Of a stretch of 64,000 nucleotides of DNA, positions 4,029 to 41,171 are shown piece after piece. Each line of letters opens with the position of its first letter. The first letter of the stretch is position 1. The DNA lies in assembly GCF_032362555.1 (NCBI RefSeq), contig NC_083511.1, positions 6,510,001 through 6,574,000 on the forward strand, written 5' to 3'. Origin of the DNA: Amyelois transitella. Lineage: Eukaryota; Arthropoda; Insecta; Lepidoptera; Pyralidae. The notes below the pieces were generated by a model that was not told the DNA's origin, ran no database searches, and saw only the letters and a list, made by a program, of their open reading frames with translations. Both the position numbers and the translations under genes were made by a program.

Positions 4029-5927
4029 ATGGCATACACGGAAAAAGTGTCACTAAGTGGCACTGCGCTGTCGTTTTTGTTATACGAATGTGCAAATTCT
4101 GTGAACAGCCAGGTAAATATTTAAATAATAATATATAAACCTATATTCAGCTATACTTACATAGTCATTATATTTCCGGCGAGCTCCACTCTACTCCAGG
4201 CAGGTAAGGCAAACTGCCTCAACCCGAGCCATGTGATCGCGATCCTGGATTAGGTAAATCAGGTGTTTATACTAGACGACTTCCTTGTAACTGTAACCTT
4301 TACTGGTGAATTTTCACCATAAAAAATTATATTATGAATGATTTTACATCCTGTTGATTAAATGTGCAGGAGTCCACACTATATTTTTACTCAGTATAAG
4401 TTAACTCAGAAAGTGTTTTGTACATGATAGTAATGGAACAGGTGCAAATGCAATGTTTCCATTGGAGATTACATTAAGTCACAATAATGTTATATTGGTT
4501 TCAGGAAGGATTTCTCATTGGTGATATAACTTCTGAAATAACTAACCACATATCAGACTCACAAAGTGATAATGCCCGACTTGATACTCAAATAGTTATA
4601 AGGACTGTATTGCCATTACCTTCAGTTTCATTATTTTATCTGCCAACTGGCAGGATAAAAGAGGATATTTTATCTGGTTTTCTTTCTAATACAGCAAGCG
4701 AAGTGGTTGGATGGTACAAATACAGAAAGAATACTAATATAAAACCTACTTTTCGAGATAAATTAATATCTAAAGGGCTTCAAAAATATTTTGAAAGACA
4801 TCACGGAAAGAAGACATTTGTGACATGTCATTTATCCAACAAAAGTTCTTCATCAGGATCAACTCATACATTTACATATAGATTTGGAAAAATAAATTGT
4901 TATGATATGTATGAGTACATTGAGGATGTGACTGCTAATTTAGGTGAAAAATTAGCTGGGTATAAAAAGCCCCATAGATTGCCACCTCATTGTGTATTTA
5001 ATAAGATTGTAAAGGAAAGCTTACAAGAAAGTTGTGGTTCAGATGCTATATTACATATTCAGGAAGCTGTAGATGTCAGATTAATAAAAGAAGCCAAAAT
5101 TGCTGCCAAGAATGAGAACATAATTAGGGATTTAGAAGCTGAAATCAAACAAATGACTGCTATATTGGCTGAAAAGCAAGCTGTAGATTTACAGTCTGCA
5201 TACAATAAAGCAATGGAGGAGAGCATCAAAAACAGAGAGGCAGCAATGGCAGAAGCTTGTATTGATGCCCTGAAAACAGTGCATGAAGTAAATATACTGG
5301 ATGTTCCTGACCTAGTACTGAATAGCAACCATGTGTCATCATTTAGAGAAAACATGGAATTTACAAATGAAAGTGGTTTAAAGGAGAGTCCTATTCTTAT
5401 GCCATCCACCTCCAGTGAACCTGTCAAATATGCTTCTGTTTTAAAGAATAAGAAGGAAGTTGCATCTACCAGTGTAAGTATCAAATACTTGAGTATATAT
5501 TATTCATGAACATACTTTGCATAATTCAGTTTCTTCTTCAGACTAGTTAGAATCTCCATGGAATCCTCACGGATGCAACCTAGATTACCACCAAAAGGAT
5601 GATGATGTATGTAGGATAATCAATATCACAGCCACATTGTATACAATTGATTGGTTTTATAACAATAATAACCTTAAAGATAATAGTAGAGTGTTTGCTG
5701 TATTTTTTTCTACACTACACCAATAAATGAAAACAGTGGTAAACTAATATTAAAATTAGTATTTGATGTCGATATATGTATGTATGAAATCAAAAATGTC
5801 TTAACTTCTTTTCCAGAAACAGAACCATTGTGATGACTTGATTTGTTTTTATGTGGAAGACAAGAAAGTGAAGAAGCTAAATGTTGTGAATGACAATTGT
5901 TTAGGAGACAGTTCACCAGAATATTGA
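4029..5927 (+). CDS. ABRAXAS: Abraxas, MPN-minus scaffold of the BRISC/BRCA1-A deubiquitinase complex
   Basis: Exons are 4029-4112, 4505-5473 and 5817-5927, all joined in phase 0 with donors gtaaat and gtaagt, giving 387 aa (human homologues are just over 400). The start MAYTEKVSLSGTALSFLLYE and the EGFLIGD segment match the Abraxas/ABRO1 (FAM175) family. The MPN-like domain covers about residues 1-190 and lacks a JAMM zinc motif, as expected for the scaffold that pairs with BRCC36. VVGWYKYR sits near residue 93. A long coiled coil follows at about 209-292, then a Ser-rich tail. The family recruits BRCC36, BRCC45 and MERIT40 and cleaves K63-linked ubiquitin. The protein ends Gly-Asp-Ser-Ser-Pro-Glu-Tyr, discussed in the findings. 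Assignment to ABRAXAS1 or ABRAXAS2 is not possible here. Confidence 0.9.
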
Positions 5928-19186: not shown

Positions 19187-20739
19187 ATGAGCTCCAAAAC
19201 TCAAGCATTGGTATCAGAATTTCTAAATTTTGTATTCAAGAACCTAATTATTTGTTCTATCTAAGATTAAAATTGTTAAATTTCCGCAGAAGAAAATCAA
19301 ATCCCTATGTTATTTAACGATTGGTGGATCTGTGGCCTACCAGTTTACATACATGAAAAAAGATTTTAATGGTTACTATCAATCATTTCTGCAGCCTGCT
19401 ATCCAGTATTTAAGCCCTGAATTAGCACACAGACTTGGAGTATCGGCTGTAAAGTATGGTTTCTTTCCACCAGAAAAATATAATGACCCAAATATACTTG
19501 TAAGTACATATTATTTCCATAGAAAAGGTTCAATCTGAACGTGAAGTTATATATATGAAACAAAAATATCAAGCATCTGCTACATCAGACTTCTTGCATA
19601 ATACATATCTAAGTACCTATTATTACTTTTTTTTACAGACAACCAAATTTTTAGGATTTGACCTTAGCAATCCAATTGGTATTGCAGCAGGTTTTGATAA
19701 ACATGGGGATGCCATAGTTGGTCTACGAAATATTGGATTTTCTATAATTGAAATAGGGTCTGTTACACCAGAACCTCAACCTGGAAATCCAAAACCTCGT
19801 GTTTTCCGTTTACCAGAAGATCTGGCTGTGATCAACAGATATGGGTTCAATAGCGAAGGCCATAATGAGGTTTATAGCAAAATCAAAGATATTGATAAAA
19901 CCATTTTGTCAAGAGGAGTATTGGGAGTTAACTTAGGAAAGAACAAAGAGTCTAATGATGCAATTAAAGATTACACTTTGGGAATTAAGAAGTTTTATGA
20001 TATAGCTGATTACTTTGTTATTAATATCAGCAGGTAGGACTATATATGTAAGAAGAATAGTGCTTTTATTTCAATCTTACAATGTTAAATTTCACTATTG
20101 TAATTTTTTTACAGTCCTAACACACCCGGCCTGAGATCATTACAACAAAGAGGAGAACTAGAGAAACTTTTAACTGAAATAAATAAGGAAAGAAACTCTA
20201 TTCAAGCTAAAACTAAACCTCCATTGCTCTTGAAACTAGCTCCAGACCTCACAAATGATGAACTGAAAGATATCATTGCTGTTGTTTCTAAGAAAGAATG
20301 CAAAGTAGATGGTCTTATAATATCTAACACAACAATAGATAGATCTTCTCTAGTGAATCAAGAGTTTTCAAATGAAACAGGGGGACTTAGTGGGAAACCA
20401 TTGACCAAGAAATCAACAGAAATGGTGAAACAAGTGTATAAATTAACTAAAGGTATGTATTTTATTTTTACTTTGTTTTATTAAAATTTTATATTTTTTT
20501 ATATGTTAATCATAATCATTATTTAAGGAAAAATACCAATAGTTGGTGTTGGAGGGGTATTCACTGGCCAGGATGCCTATGAAAAGATATTAGCTGGTGC
20601 AAATGCAATTCAGATCTACACATCATTTATTTACGAAGGACCACCTGTAATCACTAAAATAAAATCAGAACTTGCTGAATTACTGCAGAGAGATGGCTAC
20701 AAGAGTGTCAACGAAGCAATAGGAAAGGCAGTGAAATGA
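19187..20739 (+). CDS. DHODH: dihydroorotate dehydrogenase (quinone), mitochondrial
   Basis: Exons 19187-19210, 19290-19499, 19639-20033, 20115-20452 and 20528-20739 give 392 aa, close to human DHODH (395). The first exon has only eight codons (MSSKTQAL), followed by Lys-rich sequence and a hydrophobic stretch (SLCYLTIGGSVAYQF) that fits a mitochondrial leader and inner-membrane anchor. Class 2 family motifs follow: NPIGIAAGFDKHG, NRYGFNSEGH, INISSPNTPGLR with the catalytic serine, KLAPDL, ISNTT, GGLSGKPL and the FMN-phosphate loop IVGVGGVFTGQDAYEKI. The enzyme oxidises dihydroorotate to orotate in pyrimidine synthesis and passes electrons to ubiquinone. AATAAA follows at 20812. The gene is convergent with DMAC2L; the two stop codons are 93 bp apart. 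Confidence 0.95.
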
Positions 20740-25530: not shown

Positions 25531-27410
<1,880 letters not shown>

Positions 27411-31646: not shown

Positions 31647-34600
31647 CTACGCGCATCCTAGGCTCTCGCGACAAGCCACCGCCGCTACCAGCGCGGCGCC
31701 ACGCCCGCTGCCGTCTTCTGACAGCATCAGATCAAACTGAAACAACAAAATGATGCAAGTGAGGACAAAGTAGTTGTAGTAGCTATAATAAAATTTTGGG
31801 TGACTTTATGAGCGTCATGTTTTAATATAAATCTTTCAAAGCATTTCAAATTTAATTTACCTGTAGTGTGGTGCTCAAAAGGTCAAAAGTAGATCCTAGT
31901 ATGTCTGAGTAGTGAATATATGTATGTACCTAGCAAACTAGACAAATAATCGTTTAATATTCATAGGATATTTGAAGAATAAGTTAAAAAAAATCAATAG
32001 AGTATCAACTCTAAATAGAGTAATAAATAGTAAGTACTTAGTCTGCATGTATACTTATAGCTTAAATAAGCCAGAGTTTGATTGTATAAATGAGCTTGTC
32101 CGTGATTCTAAACTTGACATACTTTTCTAAAAGGCAGCGGCTACGCCACAATTACGCTAATACCAAAATCACGTGGAAGAAACCGCAGGTAGCTAGTACT
32201 CGATAGAACTGTACTGTAATTTGATGAATTGTATTCCTGTTTTTGGCAAATACGAGCTTATGTTAGTTATATTACTTAGGTATTTGATCTACATCACGTT
32301 TTACCTTTATTAAACTCATTAATGATTGCTGGTGCGTCAGTGGCGAACATGATGCAATCCATTCTAGTAGGTAGGTATAGAACTTTTATAATTGACTTGT
32401 AAAAAGTAAGTTTGCCGTTCATGTTTATAAGGAAGCTCTACATTTTCTGTTTATTATATGTACCTACTTTAACATACTCTATCAGTCATTCTATACCTAG
32501 ACTGAAAGGGGATGTCAGCATACCATCACAATACTTCTTTACATATTTTAAAGAACCAAGAATAGTTTTATTTTACATAGGTACATATACAAATGTATCA
32601 CGTTATTTATCTCTTGTGGGGTTAGGCAGAGCTAACACTATGATCAGCAGCATAGCTTAAACGATGGAATTCCAAGTTTTCATTACACTACCAGTTTTTG
32701 CATTATCTTAAACAACAACCAATGTGTTTAAATTTGTATCTATTTCTTTTAAATAAATTAACGAGGGTGTGTCATGATACCGAGACAAGATCCGCCTGCT
32801 AAGACGTCAACAAGATAAAAATTGTTTTGAACTTGATAAACGACAAAGTTCAACATGTCATCGAACCAATTTCATACAAACAATGTATTATCTGTAGTTT
32901 GTACTGGCCAGCAAGGACTTGCAAAGAAGGGGGCTCGCCTTTGATATGTACATATTATCTGTAACGCAACTTAAATATTAATTGATGTACCTACCTACTT
33001 ACAAAATATCTTTGATAACATAAGCGGTATGATATTTCTACAATAATGTTTTTAGCATAATTTTTTATGATCATTAAAATAAGCTTAGCACTATGTGGGA
33101 TGTTTCAAATTTCTACATTGACGTGATTGATATAGTATATTCAAGTATGATTTTGTTTTATTAGGTACTACAAAAATCATATTTTTAGGTAAGTAGGTAC
33201 AAGCTACCTTTAGACACCTCCAATTCTTACTCCAATTGTACCTATATCTAATCATTTTATTGATACTAAATGTGCAATTTATTAAAACCATAAAGTCACG
33301 GTGACGTGATGTGCGATGTGGCTAAATAGATATCTATAGTCAAGTGGTGCTACTGCCACACATGATGTGGCAGACCTTGAACTTTGTTCGTGGTGTCGTT
33401 GACTGAACAAATCTGTTCTTTATTAAAGTTAAATCTATGTACTTTGTACCGGACAATAAATATAAAACAAGTTTTATTTGATTACCGAATTGAAAACCCT
33501 ATAAATGTACCTAATATAAATATGTAGCTAGGAGAAACCATTTTATATAATGCTTATTTATGTTTATAAAATAATATTAAATACCTAGGTATAAGTTAGT
33601 GTTTTTAAATCGATCAAAAAGTTGTTAATATACCTATATATTCTTATTACGCTGTCACTTGAAAATTTCCAATTGCGCTATAAAAAAAAAAAAATGGGTC
33701 TATTAAGAAAAAGTACTTACTGAAATACCAGGTTGGACCAACTGCGCTATCTTTTCGCACATGAGCGTGTGGAAATGTGGGTGGAAGCGGTAGACAGAGC
33801 CATCAATGCCTACGGTGACTCTAGGTTCGTTCATCTTGTTGAGCAGGGTGGCGATTCCGGCCGACACCAAGTGAGCGGCGCGACGCGACACGCACTCGCA
33901 CACGTGTCGCACCGCGGCCATGTCCGCCTCCGTCGCGTGTGATAACCCTGCAATGTAAACATTGGTGTTGAGCAGAAACCCTGGCTTGGCCTCGGCAGAA
34001 ATGATATACAGTTTTACGTAATAGGATGTATAGATATAAAAATATTATTAGCATAAAGAAAACCGGACTAGATGGAAAGATAAATATCGCAAACTGTAGC
34101 TTGGGCCCCGATGGCTCAGAAGCATAGCAGAGGAGGGTACAAATAATAATAATAATAATATATATTTTAATTTACTGATCATCGCGAGGTTTCGTAGACC
34201 TAACTTCTTTTACAAAATATGGTAATCTTAACGATTAAGGGGCACTTAATTGGAACGGACTCTGATTTAGGTATGTACTTAATAATTACAATAGGTGATA
34301 GAGCACATGATAAACTTAAACATATAAGCATTCGCTGGCTATGGTAGGTAGATTAAATGTACCAACCGAAAACAATTTGCATGCTTAAGTAATAACACAT
34401 TTTGAGCTGCAGATTATTTTAATTAGAGCTATATTTAGATCTTAGGAGCAATAACTATTTGGTTAAACAGTCTGTCATGAGATGTCGAATTTTGTAACAT
34501 AATTGCCAATGACCATATTCGAAAAGGTAAATGATCGGGTTTCTTTGAACATCACCTAGAGTAGGTGGCAGGTAATACCTATTATGGGGCCCGTCATTGA

Positions 34601-37600
34601 GTTACACGTATGAAGGTTACTGGAAGCACGTGTCTCTACACTATCGTTGTTTATGGTATTGTTATGGTCAATTTAGGTTTTATCAAAATTTTAGATGCCG
34701 ATTGTTTAAAAAATACGAGTCTACCTATATGTTGCACAAAGCGTATTCCATTTTAATTGCATAAAATTTTCAATATATTGTTATTTGTTAGCACGTGATA
34801 CATGCATTGCATACACACGAGGAAAGTAAAGTTTACTGCAAACGTGAATGTGAATAAAAATAAACAGTAACTTCTTGTATGTTAACAATGTATGTTCTAT
34901 GCGATACGGAATGATTATTCGGATATTGGTTGATTGTAATAGTGAACGCACCCTTATTAGCCTTATAGTTTATGAGTAATATAGTTAATGAGCTGTAGGT
35001 ATAAAATATACTGAAAGTAAAATAATTTCATAAATATTTTACTTGATTATCTTATACACAATTATATAGCTGTAGGTATACTCCATTTACGGAAATCAGT
35101 CTCAGTCATAAAAGTAAATAAAATAATATATGATATCGAACTATAAAACTATAAGTACATTAATTAATTGCAGTCAAAGATCAAATGCAAATTGAACTGT
35201 CACCTCATTATATGATTTCTCTTAGATAGGTATGTTTCAGCAACACCAGCATATAAGTAAATTGTAATTTTTATTGTAAGTGCTTTTTCATTTGCCCAAT
35301 TCATATCAAAATAATATACGAACTATCAAAATTGTAGTTCCTTTCTTATTTTTTTTCGGTTTTTATCTATGTTGCCAAAAAAACGAAAGGAATATTTTCT
35401 TACGATTTGACAGTCTGACCCGTTTTTAGAGTGGTTCACATTTGATAAGTCCCATTTATTAGCTTCAATAAAACCAATTACTACTTAAAGACAGGGACAA
35501 ACAGACAAAATATGTACGTAAAATGGTTGCCGTTGGCTTATTTCCTCTTTCATCGCTTATCCTACTACTATTATAAAGGCGAAAGTTTGTATGGATGTAT
35601 GGATGTTTGTTACTCTTTCACGCAAAAACTACTGAACCGATTACCATGAAATTTGGTATGTAGGTAGCTGAAGACCCAGAATAACACATAGGCTACTTTT
35701 TATCCCAGAGTTCCCGCGGGATTGATAGGGTTTCCATGCGGACGAAGTCGCGGGCGGCCTCTAGTATTTAATACTTTTGTGATGATTCATTTTACAGGGT
35801 AAATCGTGTTGAGAAAACTAATATTTCTTCTGGTATGAATCTTTACTACGATCAGATGTATAAAATTATTTATTATAGAAGGGTTATGCAATGTACAAAG
35901 TATGTGTTCTATGCGACGATCAGGTTGCGCGTTCAGTTTATTATCATACAGTGTCGTCATGATTGATGAAAGTTTGGGTGTCTGAGTGATGGAACTAATT
36001 TACGTTTTTTTTTGCCAAGCTATCATTATGATAAGATATCAAATTTAGACGCCATTGCCCGAGCACGTTGAAGTCTTTTATAGGTTTTTTTGCGATCAAC
36101 CACATTGCATCATTCGGGTATAAATTCGAAGTTTTGATAATTATGATATCTTGTAAATAATTATTTGATTTCTTAATTTAAATCAACTTTTTTTAATTAT
36201 CTGAAAAACAGAACTGATTACTTATCTTTTCATAAATTCTAAGATCGGTTCGGATTTCATCAGTTTTAATAAACTAGGTACTCATTGTTAAATAATAAAA
36301 TGTGTCATGTGGGCCAAACTGTATGCACAACTAGCGTGTAACGTGTTCATATTTAAAAAGATATCATAAAAATAGTCATTATTATTTTTTAGAAAGATAC
36401 TTATATAAATTGCAATTACCGAGTTCCTCCAGTACATCCATACAGCTGGTAAAGTCTCCGGGTTTGTCGGACTCGATCTCAGATACATATTTGGTGTAGA
36501 AGCTGTTCCTCTGGAACAGAAGGTCGGACCCTCGTCCCCCGAAGAGCAAACCCATCCTGGTGAATTTGACCAGCGCCAGTCGTACCAACTCCCCCATGTA
36601 CATTCCTGATATCATTTTTTCTTGGCTGAAATAGAAAATTTTAGAGCTCTCAATTAAAATTTCAACGAGTTTATCGTTGGCATAAAAAAAACTTATTCCG
36701 CAATACTTTGGATGGGTACCATAACTATAACACACGAAGTAGGGCAAAATTATGTGTTATCACTTCTTGAAAAACATTATACCTACATACATACATACAT
36801 ACATATGGTCACGTCTATATCCCTTGCGGGGTAGAGAAAGCCATCAGTCTTGAAAAGACTGAATGGCCATTTCATTTCAGCTATTTGGCTTAATGATAGA
36901 ATTGAGATTCCAATAGTGACAGGTTGCTAACCCAACACCTAAAAAAGAATCCCAAGTTTGTAAGCCTATCCCTTAGTCGCCTTTTACGACATCCATGGGA
37001 AAGAGATGGAGTGGTCCTATTCTTTTTTGTATTGGTGCCGGGAACCACACGGCATATCATGAAAAACATCATTATTTTAAAATTTATAAATTTTGGAAAA
37101 TCCAATCTTCAGTATCTACTCTCAGAAAATTTCATAAGTACTTAATTTCAATACGCGTAGGTATAAAATTATGTAAATCAGTACTAAACTGAATATGTAA
37201 AACACTACAGAATGAACATGTATAGATACCTACCGATCCACCTTACAGTCATTGAAATGTAAATATTGGTACCAAGATATTTTAAATATCAAATTACTAT
37301 TAAAAATTATAAATTAAACTAATATTTTCAAAAGTCTCACTTGTTCAACGTTAGCAAAATGTTTATGCTGGAGTAACTTAAGGTCATTTTTGCTGATAGA
37401 GACGCTGCAAGTAAACTGCATCATTTCGTTCTATAGCGATTGTTATCGATCCACTGACCTTGTTGTTGTTTGGTCGTAACAAGTACCTTCAATTAATTAG
37501 TTAAGCTAATTGTTCAAACAACAGTTAAAATTGTATGATTAATTGTAAATCTGTGTTTTCGCAAAAAATGCTGCTGCAATTAATTGTTTTTAAACTATGA

Positions 37601-40600
37601 CCTTTTTATCATGATTCTGTTACGTGCAGTTTAATTGTCATTTTATTACGCAAAACAAATATATTTTATGTGACATTATATTTATTTTTATTATAATTAC
37701 CTTTTTAATTACTTATAACAAAAAACGGGTAATTTTTACAGTAGTTAAGGTGGTTTTAGGTAATTTGACTTAACAATCCTCATTTTATAAAAATAATTTA
37801 TAAGTTTTTACATACCATACGCATATACGCTTTATTCCTTACGAGTTAGACAGCCAGTAGTCTTAAAAAGATTGAAAAGCCCACATTCAGAAGATGGCTA
37901 GCGATAGCGATGAAGAGATTCAAACAGTTTAAATCGTAAATTAAAAAAAATAAGATCACTTACATCTGTTTTCCAGGGTTGATGGAGTTGGAGTCGACCT
38001 CCCTATCGAACTCGGTTCTTACGAAGTCTAGAGCACCGTCGTCTCCAAAAGCGCCCCATTCCGTGTTGATCAGCATATCCGACTTGGACATGTCGCCTTC
38101 AAACAATTCGCACTGGCCTGTCTTCTCCACGTAGCAGGCGTTGCTTCCAGTACCTTCGGAATTAAGGTAAGGTTAACCACTGAATCTTTTCATGACTTGA
38201 ATAAACACAACTTGTTATGACAGAAGACATAGCGATACGCTTTAGTTAAAAAATATTAAAAAGAGTTTGTCAAGAAAGTTCAAAAGTAGCACAGGCATTT
38301 ATAGTATAATTAAAATATTAAAAATACATTGAAAATAATAATATTAATAAGGATGCAGAAGATCGTAGCAATTACAGCAGAAATAGTTCGTGATGGTCAT
38401 TCAAATGAAAAATGTTGTTTCAGGATGACTTTAAGCCTTTTAATAAAGTCATATTGAGTTCTTTGTGTTCATAAAGAAGATTATACTTTTTATATATATT
38501 ATAATGAAGTCAATTAAATATCAGACATGCAATTTTAAGAGTGTAGTTAAATAACAAAAACAAAACACGCCCAACAACACAAAATGTAAGTAAACAAATT
38601 AAGTATTTCTTGGTGTTCAACAACAGCAAATTTATGATTTTATGATAAAATTAAAACAAATATTTATATAAGACCTACTGACTTCAGTTGGCGAGGTATT
38701 TCCCAACGAGAAATCAGCTGCAGTAAGCTCATAATAACACCAACACCACTTGCGATTGAGATCACAATAGCCCACAACCGAACACAAAAGCCGGATAAAC
38801 CAAAAATTATTATTACCAACACACAATTATGAAATAAACTAAACAGCAAAAGCTACACAGCAGCAATAACCAATGAAACCTACCAACGATGAGTCCTATT
38901 TTGCAGTTGTGGTTTTTCCACGCGCAGGACATTAGAGTTCCCGTCGTGTCATTGAGAATAGCGCAAATGTCAATCTGTACATCCTACAAGATTGAAAACA
39001 TGCTATCAGTTTATGATGAAGTTCTAGATTTATTCCAGATGTTTAGTGTGATTAGACCAGCGATACGTTGATGATGATAAGAGGCTTTCGTGATCTAGGT
39101 GGCACTTTCGTCAGTAAATTTTATGTTCATTTTTGTAACATAGTCTACTCTTACCATCAAATCAAGTATGATCTGATACCTTATATTTATTACGATTGGT
39201 ATTAATGACAAAATTGTTACGCTGGTAATAAATATGGAAGTATTTATCCGTTCTTTTTTGTAAAAAAAAAAACAACTTTACTGAATAAAGAAGAAAATAA
39301 GCATTGGTTTTCTTGACGAACTATTGAAAATAATTAAGAATTTTACAAATGCTTTTCGAAAATAGAAAATAATAGTCACTTTAATACTTACATCCAAGCG
39401 CGTAAATTTACGATAAATTAAAGTATACTAATAGAACTTTCAAAATCAAGCCCGTAATATTTGTCCGTAATGAAAAATCTAGTAAATGTGTGACAATGTT
39501 AGAATGAAAAAAAAAATGTTTACCCTTTAAATGAATACCTTTGGAAATTGTGATACTAGAGTTAAGAAGTTTATCTAAGTAAGTAATTATATGAGAAAAA
39601 AAAAGATCGTCATGATCGATTTTTTTATTGTTATTTTGTTTATAATGTGCTCTTTCTTCAATTAAACCATAAAGATCACTGACTAAGAAATGAAAGCGAA
39701 AGCCTCTTTCTTTGCTCTCATTAAATCTTAAGAAGACGCATGCCTTAGTTTTCTAGAAGAGAGCTCTATCATCGTCAACTCACCAATAATAACCCCTACT
39801 CGGCAATTTTTTTCTTTGTGTGCACATGACATAAGGGTACCAGTAGCATCATTAAGAATACCCGTCACTGATAATTTAAGGTCCTGTAAAATCACTATAA
39901 CTTATTCTTGTAATAAAAAAAAAACTGCAAGTTCATTCAGTAGTCAAGTACGAATTTTTACCAATATTTGTCAAGTGTGCCTGTATTGTATTCTTTTAAC
40001 TTATATAGTAAAAGAAGGAAAACTTACTCCTCTCCTTGCAATAGCATCTTTTAATCCTTGAACAACGTCTTCTCCAATAGCGCCGCTGCATGAGAAGCCT
40101 TTGGTCCAACGTTGCAGGATTCCTTTCGTGAGACCCATTTGTTTTAGAGGAAAACTAAAAGTGAATCCAAGAGCCAACCTTTCTTCATATACATTATGTT
40201 CCTATAAAAGATGAACACAATTAATAGAATCGAATAATGTATGAAAAATTAAAAGATGTAATAAAATTAAACTTAGCAAATTACCTTCATGAAATTAGCT
40301 AAGCACTCTGCTATATGATCAAATAAAGCGATGCCTGTTCCGGTCATGATGTGATTAGGTATGGCATAAATTTTCGACTGCATATCGAAATGATTTTCTC
40401 CCAAGTTTATTATAAGAACTCTGAAGTTTGTGCCCCCTAGATCTAATGCGAGGAATTTTCCACGTTCTGCAAAAAAGAAAAATATATTTTACCATATGTT
40501 TTAGTATATACCTAGTAGGTATAAATGATATAATTTGTTGTTCGATATTTGAAATATTTACCTTTTCCATTTGGCAAGTCTTGTATGTAAGTTAACCAAC

Positions 40601-41171
40601 ATTTTACAGTCGCCGTAGGATGAGTATCTTTACTAAGTCCTTTTACTAGATCGTTATGTAGTCTAGTCATAATTTCTCTGAGCTGCTTGTCTGTCATATG
40701 TAGTATTTCGCATTCTTCGCGAATCTGCAACAAAAATGTTACATAAATAAATAGCATGGCACTCGAACCACACTGCTATTGACGTTTGAAAACAAGACAG
40801 TATCTAATAATAGATTTCGTTAGGAAGCCTGTGATGTAGGAGCGCTGTGATAAAAAAAAGGAATGTACGAACCTAAAAAAAATTTTTTCCGCTGTCCTGC
40901 TCTGTAATTCAAGTCAATAGTTATAAAGAATTTGCTACCTTTATTTATTTTTGTTAAATGGCTTGACATTGATGCTAGTGCAATATCCTTACATATAAAA
41001 CTAGTAGTACCTAGTATGCAACCCGTTCATTATCGCCAACGAGTTTCACAAGGTCAAAGCGGTCATTACAACACTACCGTTGCTTTCCAATTTAATGCCG
41101 GTTTTGAATATTGAAATTGTTAAAAATATTACTGTACTCACCAAAGGCAAATTATTGATAGCCATACCCAT
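31647..41171 (-). CDS. Hex: hexokinase
   Basis: Minus-strand exons for one isoform: 41171-41142, 40724-40562, 40466-40285, 40201-40028, then either 39883-39784 or 38983-38884, then 38153-37964, 36625-36420, 33947-33721, 31736-31647. This gives 453 aa, the usual single-domain insect size of about 50 kDa. Motifs: THPTATVK, the phosphate loop [12 protein letters not shown] (about 70), LGFTFSFP and WTKGF (Thr158, Lys159), the catalytic Asn194-Asp195 in [31 protein letters not shown] (Glu248), [14 protein letters not shown] (Glu282) and the C-terminal [19 protein letters not shown]. It phosphorylates glucose at the head of glycolysis and trehalose or glycogen use. The exon at 36625 gives Ile-Gln-Glu-Lys where most relatives have Phe-Glu-Lys. 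The acceptor at 38153 has a weak pyrimidine tract. Introns hold a Helitron and a foldback repeat. Confidence 0.93.
34139..34164. repeat. (AAT)n microsatellite
   Basis: Uninterrupted aat triplets in a hexokinase intron. Confidence 0.8.
35560..35764 (+). mobile_element. Lep1-like Helitron, 205 bp, young copy C
   Basis: Starts TCCTACTACTATTATAAAGG after an A and ends GCGGCCT-like sequence plus CTAG before a T. It is identical to copy A at 18603-18807 and lies in a hexokinase intron. Confidence 0.88.
36808..37054 (+). repeat. foldback-type repeat, copy 2, in a hexokinase intron
   Basis: Closely similar to 14812-15054 over nearly its whole length, again preceded by an ACAT microsatellite (36782-36804). 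Confidence 0.7.
38884..38983 (-). CDS. Hex: hexokinase mutually exclusive exon, version b (proximal to 3' part)
   Basis: A 100-bp exon reading [20 protein letters not shown] and on to GLIVG, with acceptor tgtag and donor gtaggt. It starts in phase 0 and ends in phase 1, exactly like the exon at 39784-39883, and encodes the same part of the enzyme, including the catalytic Asn-Asp pair. The two encoded segments share 18 of 33 residues. Confidence 0.85.
39784..39883 (-). CDS. Hex: hexokinase mutually exclusive exon, version a
   Basis: A 100-bp exon reading [20 protein letters not shown] and on to GVIIG, with acceptor tacag and donor gtgagt. Length and phases equal those of the exon at 38884-38983. 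Using both would add 100 bp and shift the frame, so only one can be used per productive transcript. Confidence 0.85.
41142..41171 (-). CDS. Hex: hexokinase first coding exon, isoform 1 ([10 protein letters not shown])
   Basis: ATG in good context (caaaATGG), ten codons, then the strong donor gtgagt in phase 0, matching the acceptor of the exon at 40724. It is the first exon nearest to the body of the gene. Its promoter region (41599-41631) holds an inverted CCAAT box and a CRE. Confidence 0.6.

What the first reader, a model, noticed from the sequence alone, without database searches (positions are those of the whole stretch)
38884..39883. Hexokinase has two mutually exclusive exons over the catalytic base
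Two minus-strand exons, 39784-39883 and 38983-38884, both have exactly 100 bp, start in phase 0, end in phase 1 and encode the same 33 residues plus a split Gly. They share 18 of 33 residues, and all differences lie around, not in, [12 protein letters not shown]. Including both shifts the frame by 100 bp, so one copy per mRNA is enforced. By homology to glucokinase (Asn204-Asp205) the pair holds the catalytic base, so the choice could tune glucose affinity, inhibition or tissue use of one enzyme.
Basis: partly seen in the sequence, partly recalled or inferred. Interest (0 to 1): 0.8.

Follow-up and report, generated by a model that had tools for sequence, protein, structure and literature searches.

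The report
Hexokinase with two swappable active-site exons
This hexokinase gene carries two old, different copies of the exon that holds the catalytic residue, so alternative splicing could make two versions of the enzyme that takes the first step of sugar use, probably differing in how they bind glucose.

Summary
On the minus strand, exons 39883-39784 (5a) and 38983-38884 (5b) are each 100 nt, with the same phases, GT-AG borders and 18 of 33 shared residues, inside a hexokinase gene of nine coding positions (41171-31647). Either copy gives an intact 453-residue enzyme; both or neither gives an early stop. Third codon positions are at random identity (9 of 33), second positions keep 28 of 33; pS 0.90, pN 0.30: both copies have long been kept as protein. 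A genome search with the 5a segment found no further copy; the second hexokinase gene shows no such pair. 5b is the human-like copy, 5a the derived one.

Corrections: one difference lies inside the motif, Thr to Ala directly after the catalytic Asp. Another (Trp/His) falls on glucokinase position 215, where Y215A speeds glucose binding. Frame makes wrong products fail; it does not choose the exon. An unusually GU-rich tract follows 5b.

No transcripts or related insects could be examined. Most likely: mutually exclusive exons that tune glucose affinity or regulation. New member of a known kind (PKM, KHK); no report seen in the listings of eight searches of open papers.

The parts
39784..39883 (-). 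Alternative exon 5a: 33 residues ([33 protein letters not shown]) plus first base of a split Gly; the derived copy
38884..38983 (-). Alternative exon 5b: 33 residues ([33 protein letters not shown]) plus first base of a split Gly; the human-like copy
41142..41171 (-). Coding exon 1 (start codon)
40562..40724 (-). Coding exon 2
40285..40466 (-). Coding exon 3
40028..40201 (-). Coding exon 4, common upstream partner
37964..38153 (-). Coding exon 6, common downstream partner
36420..36625 (-). Coding exon 7
33721..33947 (-). Coding exon 8
31647..31736 (-). Coding exon 9 (stop codon)
38702..38883 (-). GU-rich intronic tract directly after the 5b donor; candidate splicing element (inference)
   Evidence: test made on 38883-38734

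Best explanation
Exons 5a and 5b are an old tandem exon duplication used as mutually exclusive alternatives in one hexokinase gene. Each mRNA takes one copy between exons 4 and 6, giving two 453-residue hexokinases that are identical except for 15 residues around the catalytic Asn-Asp. Both should be catalytic. They should differ in glucose affinity, ease of domain closure or sensitivity to regulators, because they differ at the residue after the catalytic Asp (Thr in 5b, Ala in 5a) and at the helix alpha-5 position that is Tyr215 in human glucokinase (Trp in 5b, His in 5a). mRNAs with both or neither exon end early and should decay. The choice is probably made by trans-acting splicing factors, with the GU-rich tract after 5b as the best candidate site. 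Shown here: the anatomy, the open frames, long protein constraint on the pair, and which copy is derived. Inferred: that both are spliced in, exclusivity, kinetics, regulation.
For: Equal length, phases and GT-AG borders; 453 aa with either copy, 220 aa with both and 210 with none. Identity by codon position 19, 28 and 9 of 33; third positions at random level (0.27 against 0.24 expected); pS 0.90, pN 0.30; second against third position P = 4e-6. Both isoforms pass Pfam PF00349 (236.1 bits with 5a, 244.3 with 5b) and PF03727 (280.4 and 281.4). 5b matches 20 of 33 residues of the human HK2 N half and 14 of the C half, 5a 11 and 12; at 6 positions only 5b keeps an HK2 residue, at 0 only 5a does. 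D205H is dead in human glucokinase and Y215A mainly accelerates glucose binding (passages of PMC10131484); Met210, Tyr214 and Tyr215 belong to the activator site (section of PMC4370448). The G+T content of the 150 nt after the 5b donor is reached by 0 of 78,800 sampled windows. In human tandem-duplicated exons ligand-binding residues are mostly kept while others change (section of PMC9741552), the pattern seen here.
Against: No transcript was seen for either exon and no other insect species could be compared. The GU-rich tract was spotted by eye before it was tested, and several motifs were looked at. Pairing between the introns, one known route to exclusivity, was not clearly above shuffled sequence. 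Position 215 is known from glucokinase, a cooperative enzyme; whether it matters in this hexokinase is unknown, and 5a's large distance from human HK2 would also fit relaxed constraint on 5a.
Confidence: 0.75

Rival explanations
1. Both exons are real, but the pair serves mainly as an off switch: a share of transcripts takes both or neither exon and is degraded, so splicing sets the amount of hexokinase more than its kind.
For: Both-in and none-in mRNAs have early stops followed by further exon junctions.
Against: Long constraint on the protein sequence of both copies is not needed for an off switch.
Confidence: 0.1
2. 5a makes a catalytically weak hexokinase that acts as a glucose sensor or binding partner rather than as an enzyme.
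For: 5a has Ala directly after the catalytic Asp and is the less human-like copy; Thr is found there in the HK1 and HK2 halves displayed, in the second gene of this genome and in 65 of 69 scored bacterial relatives.
Against: Asn-Asp is kept; 4 of the 69 scored bacterial relatives also have Ala there; the 5a isoform still scores 236.1 bits in PF00349. Activity of those relatives was not tested.
Confidence: 0.1
3. 5a is an unused or decaying copy and the gene makes only the 5b form.
For: No transcripts seen here; 5a is farther from human HK2.
Against: Open frame, exact length and phase, intact borders, random third positions with 28 of 33 second positions kept.
Confidence: 0.05

Closest known systems
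PKM and PFKP tandem-duplicated exon substitutions
   Same: A glycolytic gene with one of two homologous exons per mRNA; [quoted passage not shown]
   Different: There the difference named is in an allosteric site; here the exon carries the catalytic base, and the enzyme is hexokinase.
Ketohexokinase KHK-A / KHK-C (exons 3A / 3C)
   Same: A sugar kinase with two exclusive exons beside the active site, the catalytic residue kept in both, KHK-C with the greater fructose affinity, and tissue-exclusive use (passages of PMC6464065).
   Different: An unrelated kinase family (recalled) and so an independent duplication; here kinetics and tissue use are unknown.
Human glucokinase, helix alpha-5 activator site
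   Same: Homologous enzyme; its position 215, which differs between 5a and 5b, affects glucose binding.
   Different: The glucokinase effects seen are from drugs and point mutations, not from alternative exons.
Cnaphalocrocis medinalis hexokinase (CmHK)
   Same: Single-domain moth hexokinase of 452 aa (passages of PMC7693289), against 453 aa here.
   Different: The terms isoform, splice and exon do not occur in that paper's main text.

Membership tests
Hexokinase (Pfam PF00349 + PF03727) | Both Pfam domains above their cut-offs in either isoform | tested here: met
   236.1 and 280.4 bits with 5a, 244.3 and 281.4 with 5b; cut-offs 24.3 and 24
Hexokinase (Pfam PF00349 + PF03727) | Catalytic Asn-Asp kept | tested here: met
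   ILND in both exons, aligned to HK1 and HK2
Hexokinase (Pfam PF00349 + PF03727) | Phosphorylates glucose with ATP | not testable with these tools
   needs an enzyme assay
Mutually exclusive tandem-duplicated exons | Two adjacent homologous exons with matching length and phases | tested here: met
Mutually exclusive tandem-duplicated exons | Either exon alone keeps the frame; both or none breaks it | tested here: met
Mutually exclusive tandem-duplicated exons | Both copies under protein constraint | tested here: met
   one species, 33 codons
Mutually exclusive tandem-duplicated exons | Both are found in mRNA, one at a time | not testable with these tools
Exclusivity by competing intron RNA structures | Pairing between introns beyond chance, with covariation in relatives | tested here: inconclusive
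   shuffles at least as good: 9, 4 and 20 of 60 (whole-intron duplex energy); 131, 158 and 53 of 200 (best ungapped stem), in the order 5a/5b intron with 5b/6, intron 4 with 5a/5b, intron 4 with 5b/6; no relatives for covariation
Exclusivity by steric block | Intron between the two exons too short to splice | tested here: not met
   that intron is 800 nt
Exclusivity by U2/U12 mismatch | Mixed U2 and U12 splice-site types | tested here: not met
   borders listed read as U2 type by eye; no scoring program was run

The most novel reading that the evidence does not exclude
One hexokinase gene makes, by swapping the exon over the catalytic base, a standard enzyme (5b) and a retuned enzyme (5a), using the same helix alpha-5 position that affects glucose binding in vertebrate glucokinase; splicing would then stand in for the separate high- and low-affinity hexokinase genes of vertebrates.
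Probability: 0.2. Interest if true: 0.75.

Novelty: new member of a known kind. Interest (0 to 1): 0.55.

Why it matters
Hexokinase controls the entry of sugar into metabolism. A gene that changes its own catalytic segment by splicing would let one locus serve tissues with different sugar supply. It also offers a natural pair of active-site variants, identical elsewhere, for testing what sets glucose affinity in this fold, and would add hexokinase to the glycolytic and sugar kinases (PKM, PFKP, KHK) known to be tuned by exclusive exons.

Tried and rejected
Chance or artefact: rejected (shuffles and cassette scan; 57 of 100 nt identity is too low for an assembly duplication).

Relic 5a: judged unlikely from the codon-position pattern. 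In that call the library NG86 gave dN 0.39 and no dS (saturated), and YN00 failed; pS and pN are from my own count in the same script.

A further copy: none seen by tblastn of the exons against the window, by tblastn of the 5b protein against 14 kb around the C24 gene, or by a genome search with a 5a segment (three matches, 5a, 5b and a weak C24 piece at E 0.5; that tool scores only its best candidates).

Intron pairing as the switch: not clearly beyond chance (lowest share 4 of 60 for intron 4 with the 5a/5b intron; one search measures whole introns, not local stems). The inverted repeat 39309-39335 / 38251-38277, which would loop out 5b, is a weak lead. No tandem repeats were found at 38100-40100.

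GCATG (recalled Rbfox core) about 40 nt after 5a and about 15 nt before 5b: about 3% per 60-nt window of this strand. Three YGCY in the 40 nt after 5b: 1.2% of windows. Leads only. A bacterial promoter scan has no bearing.

Related insect loci: two single-protein scans confirmed none (19 pattern matches; 0). The alignment scan of genome contigs gave 70 bacterial relatives, used only for the residue after Asn-Asp (65 Thr, 4 Ala, and L014, where the script took a wrong Asn-Asp, not counted). The alignment scan of viral contigs had 14 pattern matches, none confirmed. Structure prediction was not run, because a spliced protein is not read letter for letter from the window's DNA.

Literature: ten searches of open PMC papers. 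Eight sought hexokinase with exclusive exons or isoforms; for these I saw listings with titles and the starts of abstracts, and none was about such a pair. Two listings were capped (20 of 743, 15 of 1,063), and one search listed 15 of 16. A Lepidoptera workshop volume (PMC2999431) is listed as holding 'hexokinase gene', 'alternative splicing', 'Bombyx mori' and 'isoform', but the text I could open had 1,439 characters and no hexokinase, so it is unread. Subscription papers and genome annotations were not searchable; predicted isoforms may already be in databases.

Full report
WHAT IS THERE. The minus strand of the window carries a hexokinase gene with coding exons 41171-41142, 40724-40562, 40466-40285, 40201-40028, then 39883-39784 (5a) and 38983-38884 (5b), then 38153-37964, 36625-36420, 33947-33721 and 31736-31647, each border GT-AG. 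Either 5a or 5b between exons 4 and 6 gives an open frame of 453 residues from start to stop. With both, the protein has 220 residues (four past 5a); with neither, 210. Both isoforms pass the two Pfam hexokinase models, and the best-scoring solved structures are human HK2 and HK1. The window is G000:C7:6510001-6574000 of an assembly of 327 Mb in 33 contigs.

IS IT MORE THAN CHANCE. Yes. The two exons have the same length and phases and share 18 of 33 residues; 0 of 200,000 shuffles reach 18 (maximum 12). Of 339 AG-100 nt-GT cassettes in the window on both strands, the best after these two matches at 7 positions and contains stops. A search of the genome with a 46-residue 5a segment gives three matches: 5a, 5b and one weak piece (E 0.5) of a second hexokinase gene on C24 (the tool scores only its best candidates).

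BOTH COPIES ARE KEPT AS PROTEIN. Nucleotide identity is 57 of 100; by codon position it is 19, 28 and 9 of 33. Third positions are at the level expected from base composition (0.27 against 0.24), so synonymous change is saturated (pS 0.90), while pN is 0.30; second against third positions differ with P = 4e-6. If one copy had drifted freely for a large share of that time, its second positions would have changed as well. This argues against a relic, but it rests on one species and 33 codons.

WHICH COPY IS OLD-STYLE. Against human HK2, 5b matches 20 (N half) and 14 (C half) of 33 residues, 5a 11 and 12. At six positions 5b keeps a residue of HK2 and 5a does not; the reverse occurs at none. At seven positions 5a and 5b share a residue that neither HK2 half has. 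Flanking exons match the N half at 28 of 59 (exon 4), 38 of 61 (exon 6) and 38 of 69 (exon 7), so 5b is in their range and 5a is below it. The simplest reading is a duplication after the split from the vertebrate lineage, with 5a as the changed copy. The second hexokinase gene of this genome (C24, about 103.4-107.9 kb) shows one copy of this region, reads LNDTTGTL there, and has an exon border inside the stretch that corresponds to exon 5.

WHAT DIFFERS IN THE ENZYME. The catalytic Asn-Asp is the same in both. Thr stands there in the HK1 and HK2 halves displayed. Of 70 bacterial relatives, 65 have Thr, 4 have Ala and one was mis-parsed and not counted, so Ala is unusual but occurs. The residue at +10 (the 215 position) is Trp in 5b and His in 5a; it is Tyr or Phe in the HK1 and HK2 halves displayed. 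Positions 210, 214 and 215 belong to the activator site of human glucokinase (section of PMC4370448; passages of PMC6661843). Positions 210 and 214 are the same in 5a and 5b (Leu, Ala), so 215 is the one of these three that exon choice alters. In glucokinase Y215A mainly accelerates glucose binding (passages of PMC10131484). Most other differences lie before Asn-Asp and after the helix motif. Tuning of glucose affinity or of domain closure is therefore the most likely effect; it is inferred from homology, not measured.

HOW THE CHOICE MIGHT BE MADE. Steric exclusion is unlikely (800-nt intron), as is a U2/U12 mismatch (borders look U2 by eye). Pairing between the introns is not clearly stronger than in shuffles: 9, 4 and 20 of 60 for whole introns, 158, 53 and 131 of 200 for the best ungapped stem. 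An inverted repeat that would loop out 5b is a weak lead. The clearest signal is compositional: the 150 nt after the 5b donor are 74.7% G+T, with a GT/TG step density of 0.293. Of 78,800 overlapping windows sampled from 200 kb of the same genome on both strands, 0 reach the first value and 167 (in 4 bins of 300 nt) the second. The GT/TG density after 5a is ordinary (0.093, reached by 74% of windows). I noticed the tract by eye before testing it, so its rarity is somewhat overstated. GU-rich tracts are bound by CELF/Bruno-type and TDP-43-type factors (recalled, from no call). I take it as the best candidate element for choosing 5b. Double or no inclusion would then be cleaned up by early stops.

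COMPARISON WITH WHAT IS KNOWN. Exclusive exons are known in PKM and PFKP, where an allosteric residue changes, and in ketohexokinase, where the exon lies beside the active site and the catalytic residue is kept (PMC9741552, section read; PMC6464065, passages). The pattern here, catalytic residues kept and neighbours changed, is the general pattern reported for that class. So this works like those pairs and by anatomy belongs to the mutually exclusive tandem exons; proof by transcripts is missing. Eight searches of open papers sought a hexokinase case, and their listings, some capped, showed none. One moth hexokinase paper (PMC7693289) does not use the words isoform, splice or exon in its main text. 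One Lepidoptera workshop volume that may bear on it could not be read. Genome annotation databases could not be searched.

VERDICT. A real, long-kept exon pair over the catalytic base; most likely mutually exclusive and functional; the effect on the enzyme is plausible and testable. New member of a known kind.

Noticed in passing
window 31647-41171 (-): Third-position G+C of the gene jumps between the two alternative exons: 0.24-0.39 for exons 2 to 5a, 0.55-0.71 for 5b to 9 (exon 1, ten codons, 0.50). Unexplained.
   Followed up: partly
window 38552-38600 (-): A second GU-rich patch further into the intron after 5b (G+T 0.82 in the 50 nt from 38600).
   Followed up: no
L076/L077 (G000:C24, about 103.4-107.9 kb, -): A second, more divergent hexokinase gene with a different exon border here and no duplicated exon seen.
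   Followed up: partly
window 39309-39335 and 38251-38277: 27-nt inverted repeat, 78% complementary, that would loop out exon 5b; stems of this strength are not beyond chance.
   Followed up: partly
window 4487-5506 (+), 19555-20034 (+), 25698-26156 (+): Of seven other reading frames scanned, three match Pfam: an Abraxas-type MPN domain, dihydroorotate dehydrogenase and a Ras-family GTPase; four match nothing.
   Followed up: no
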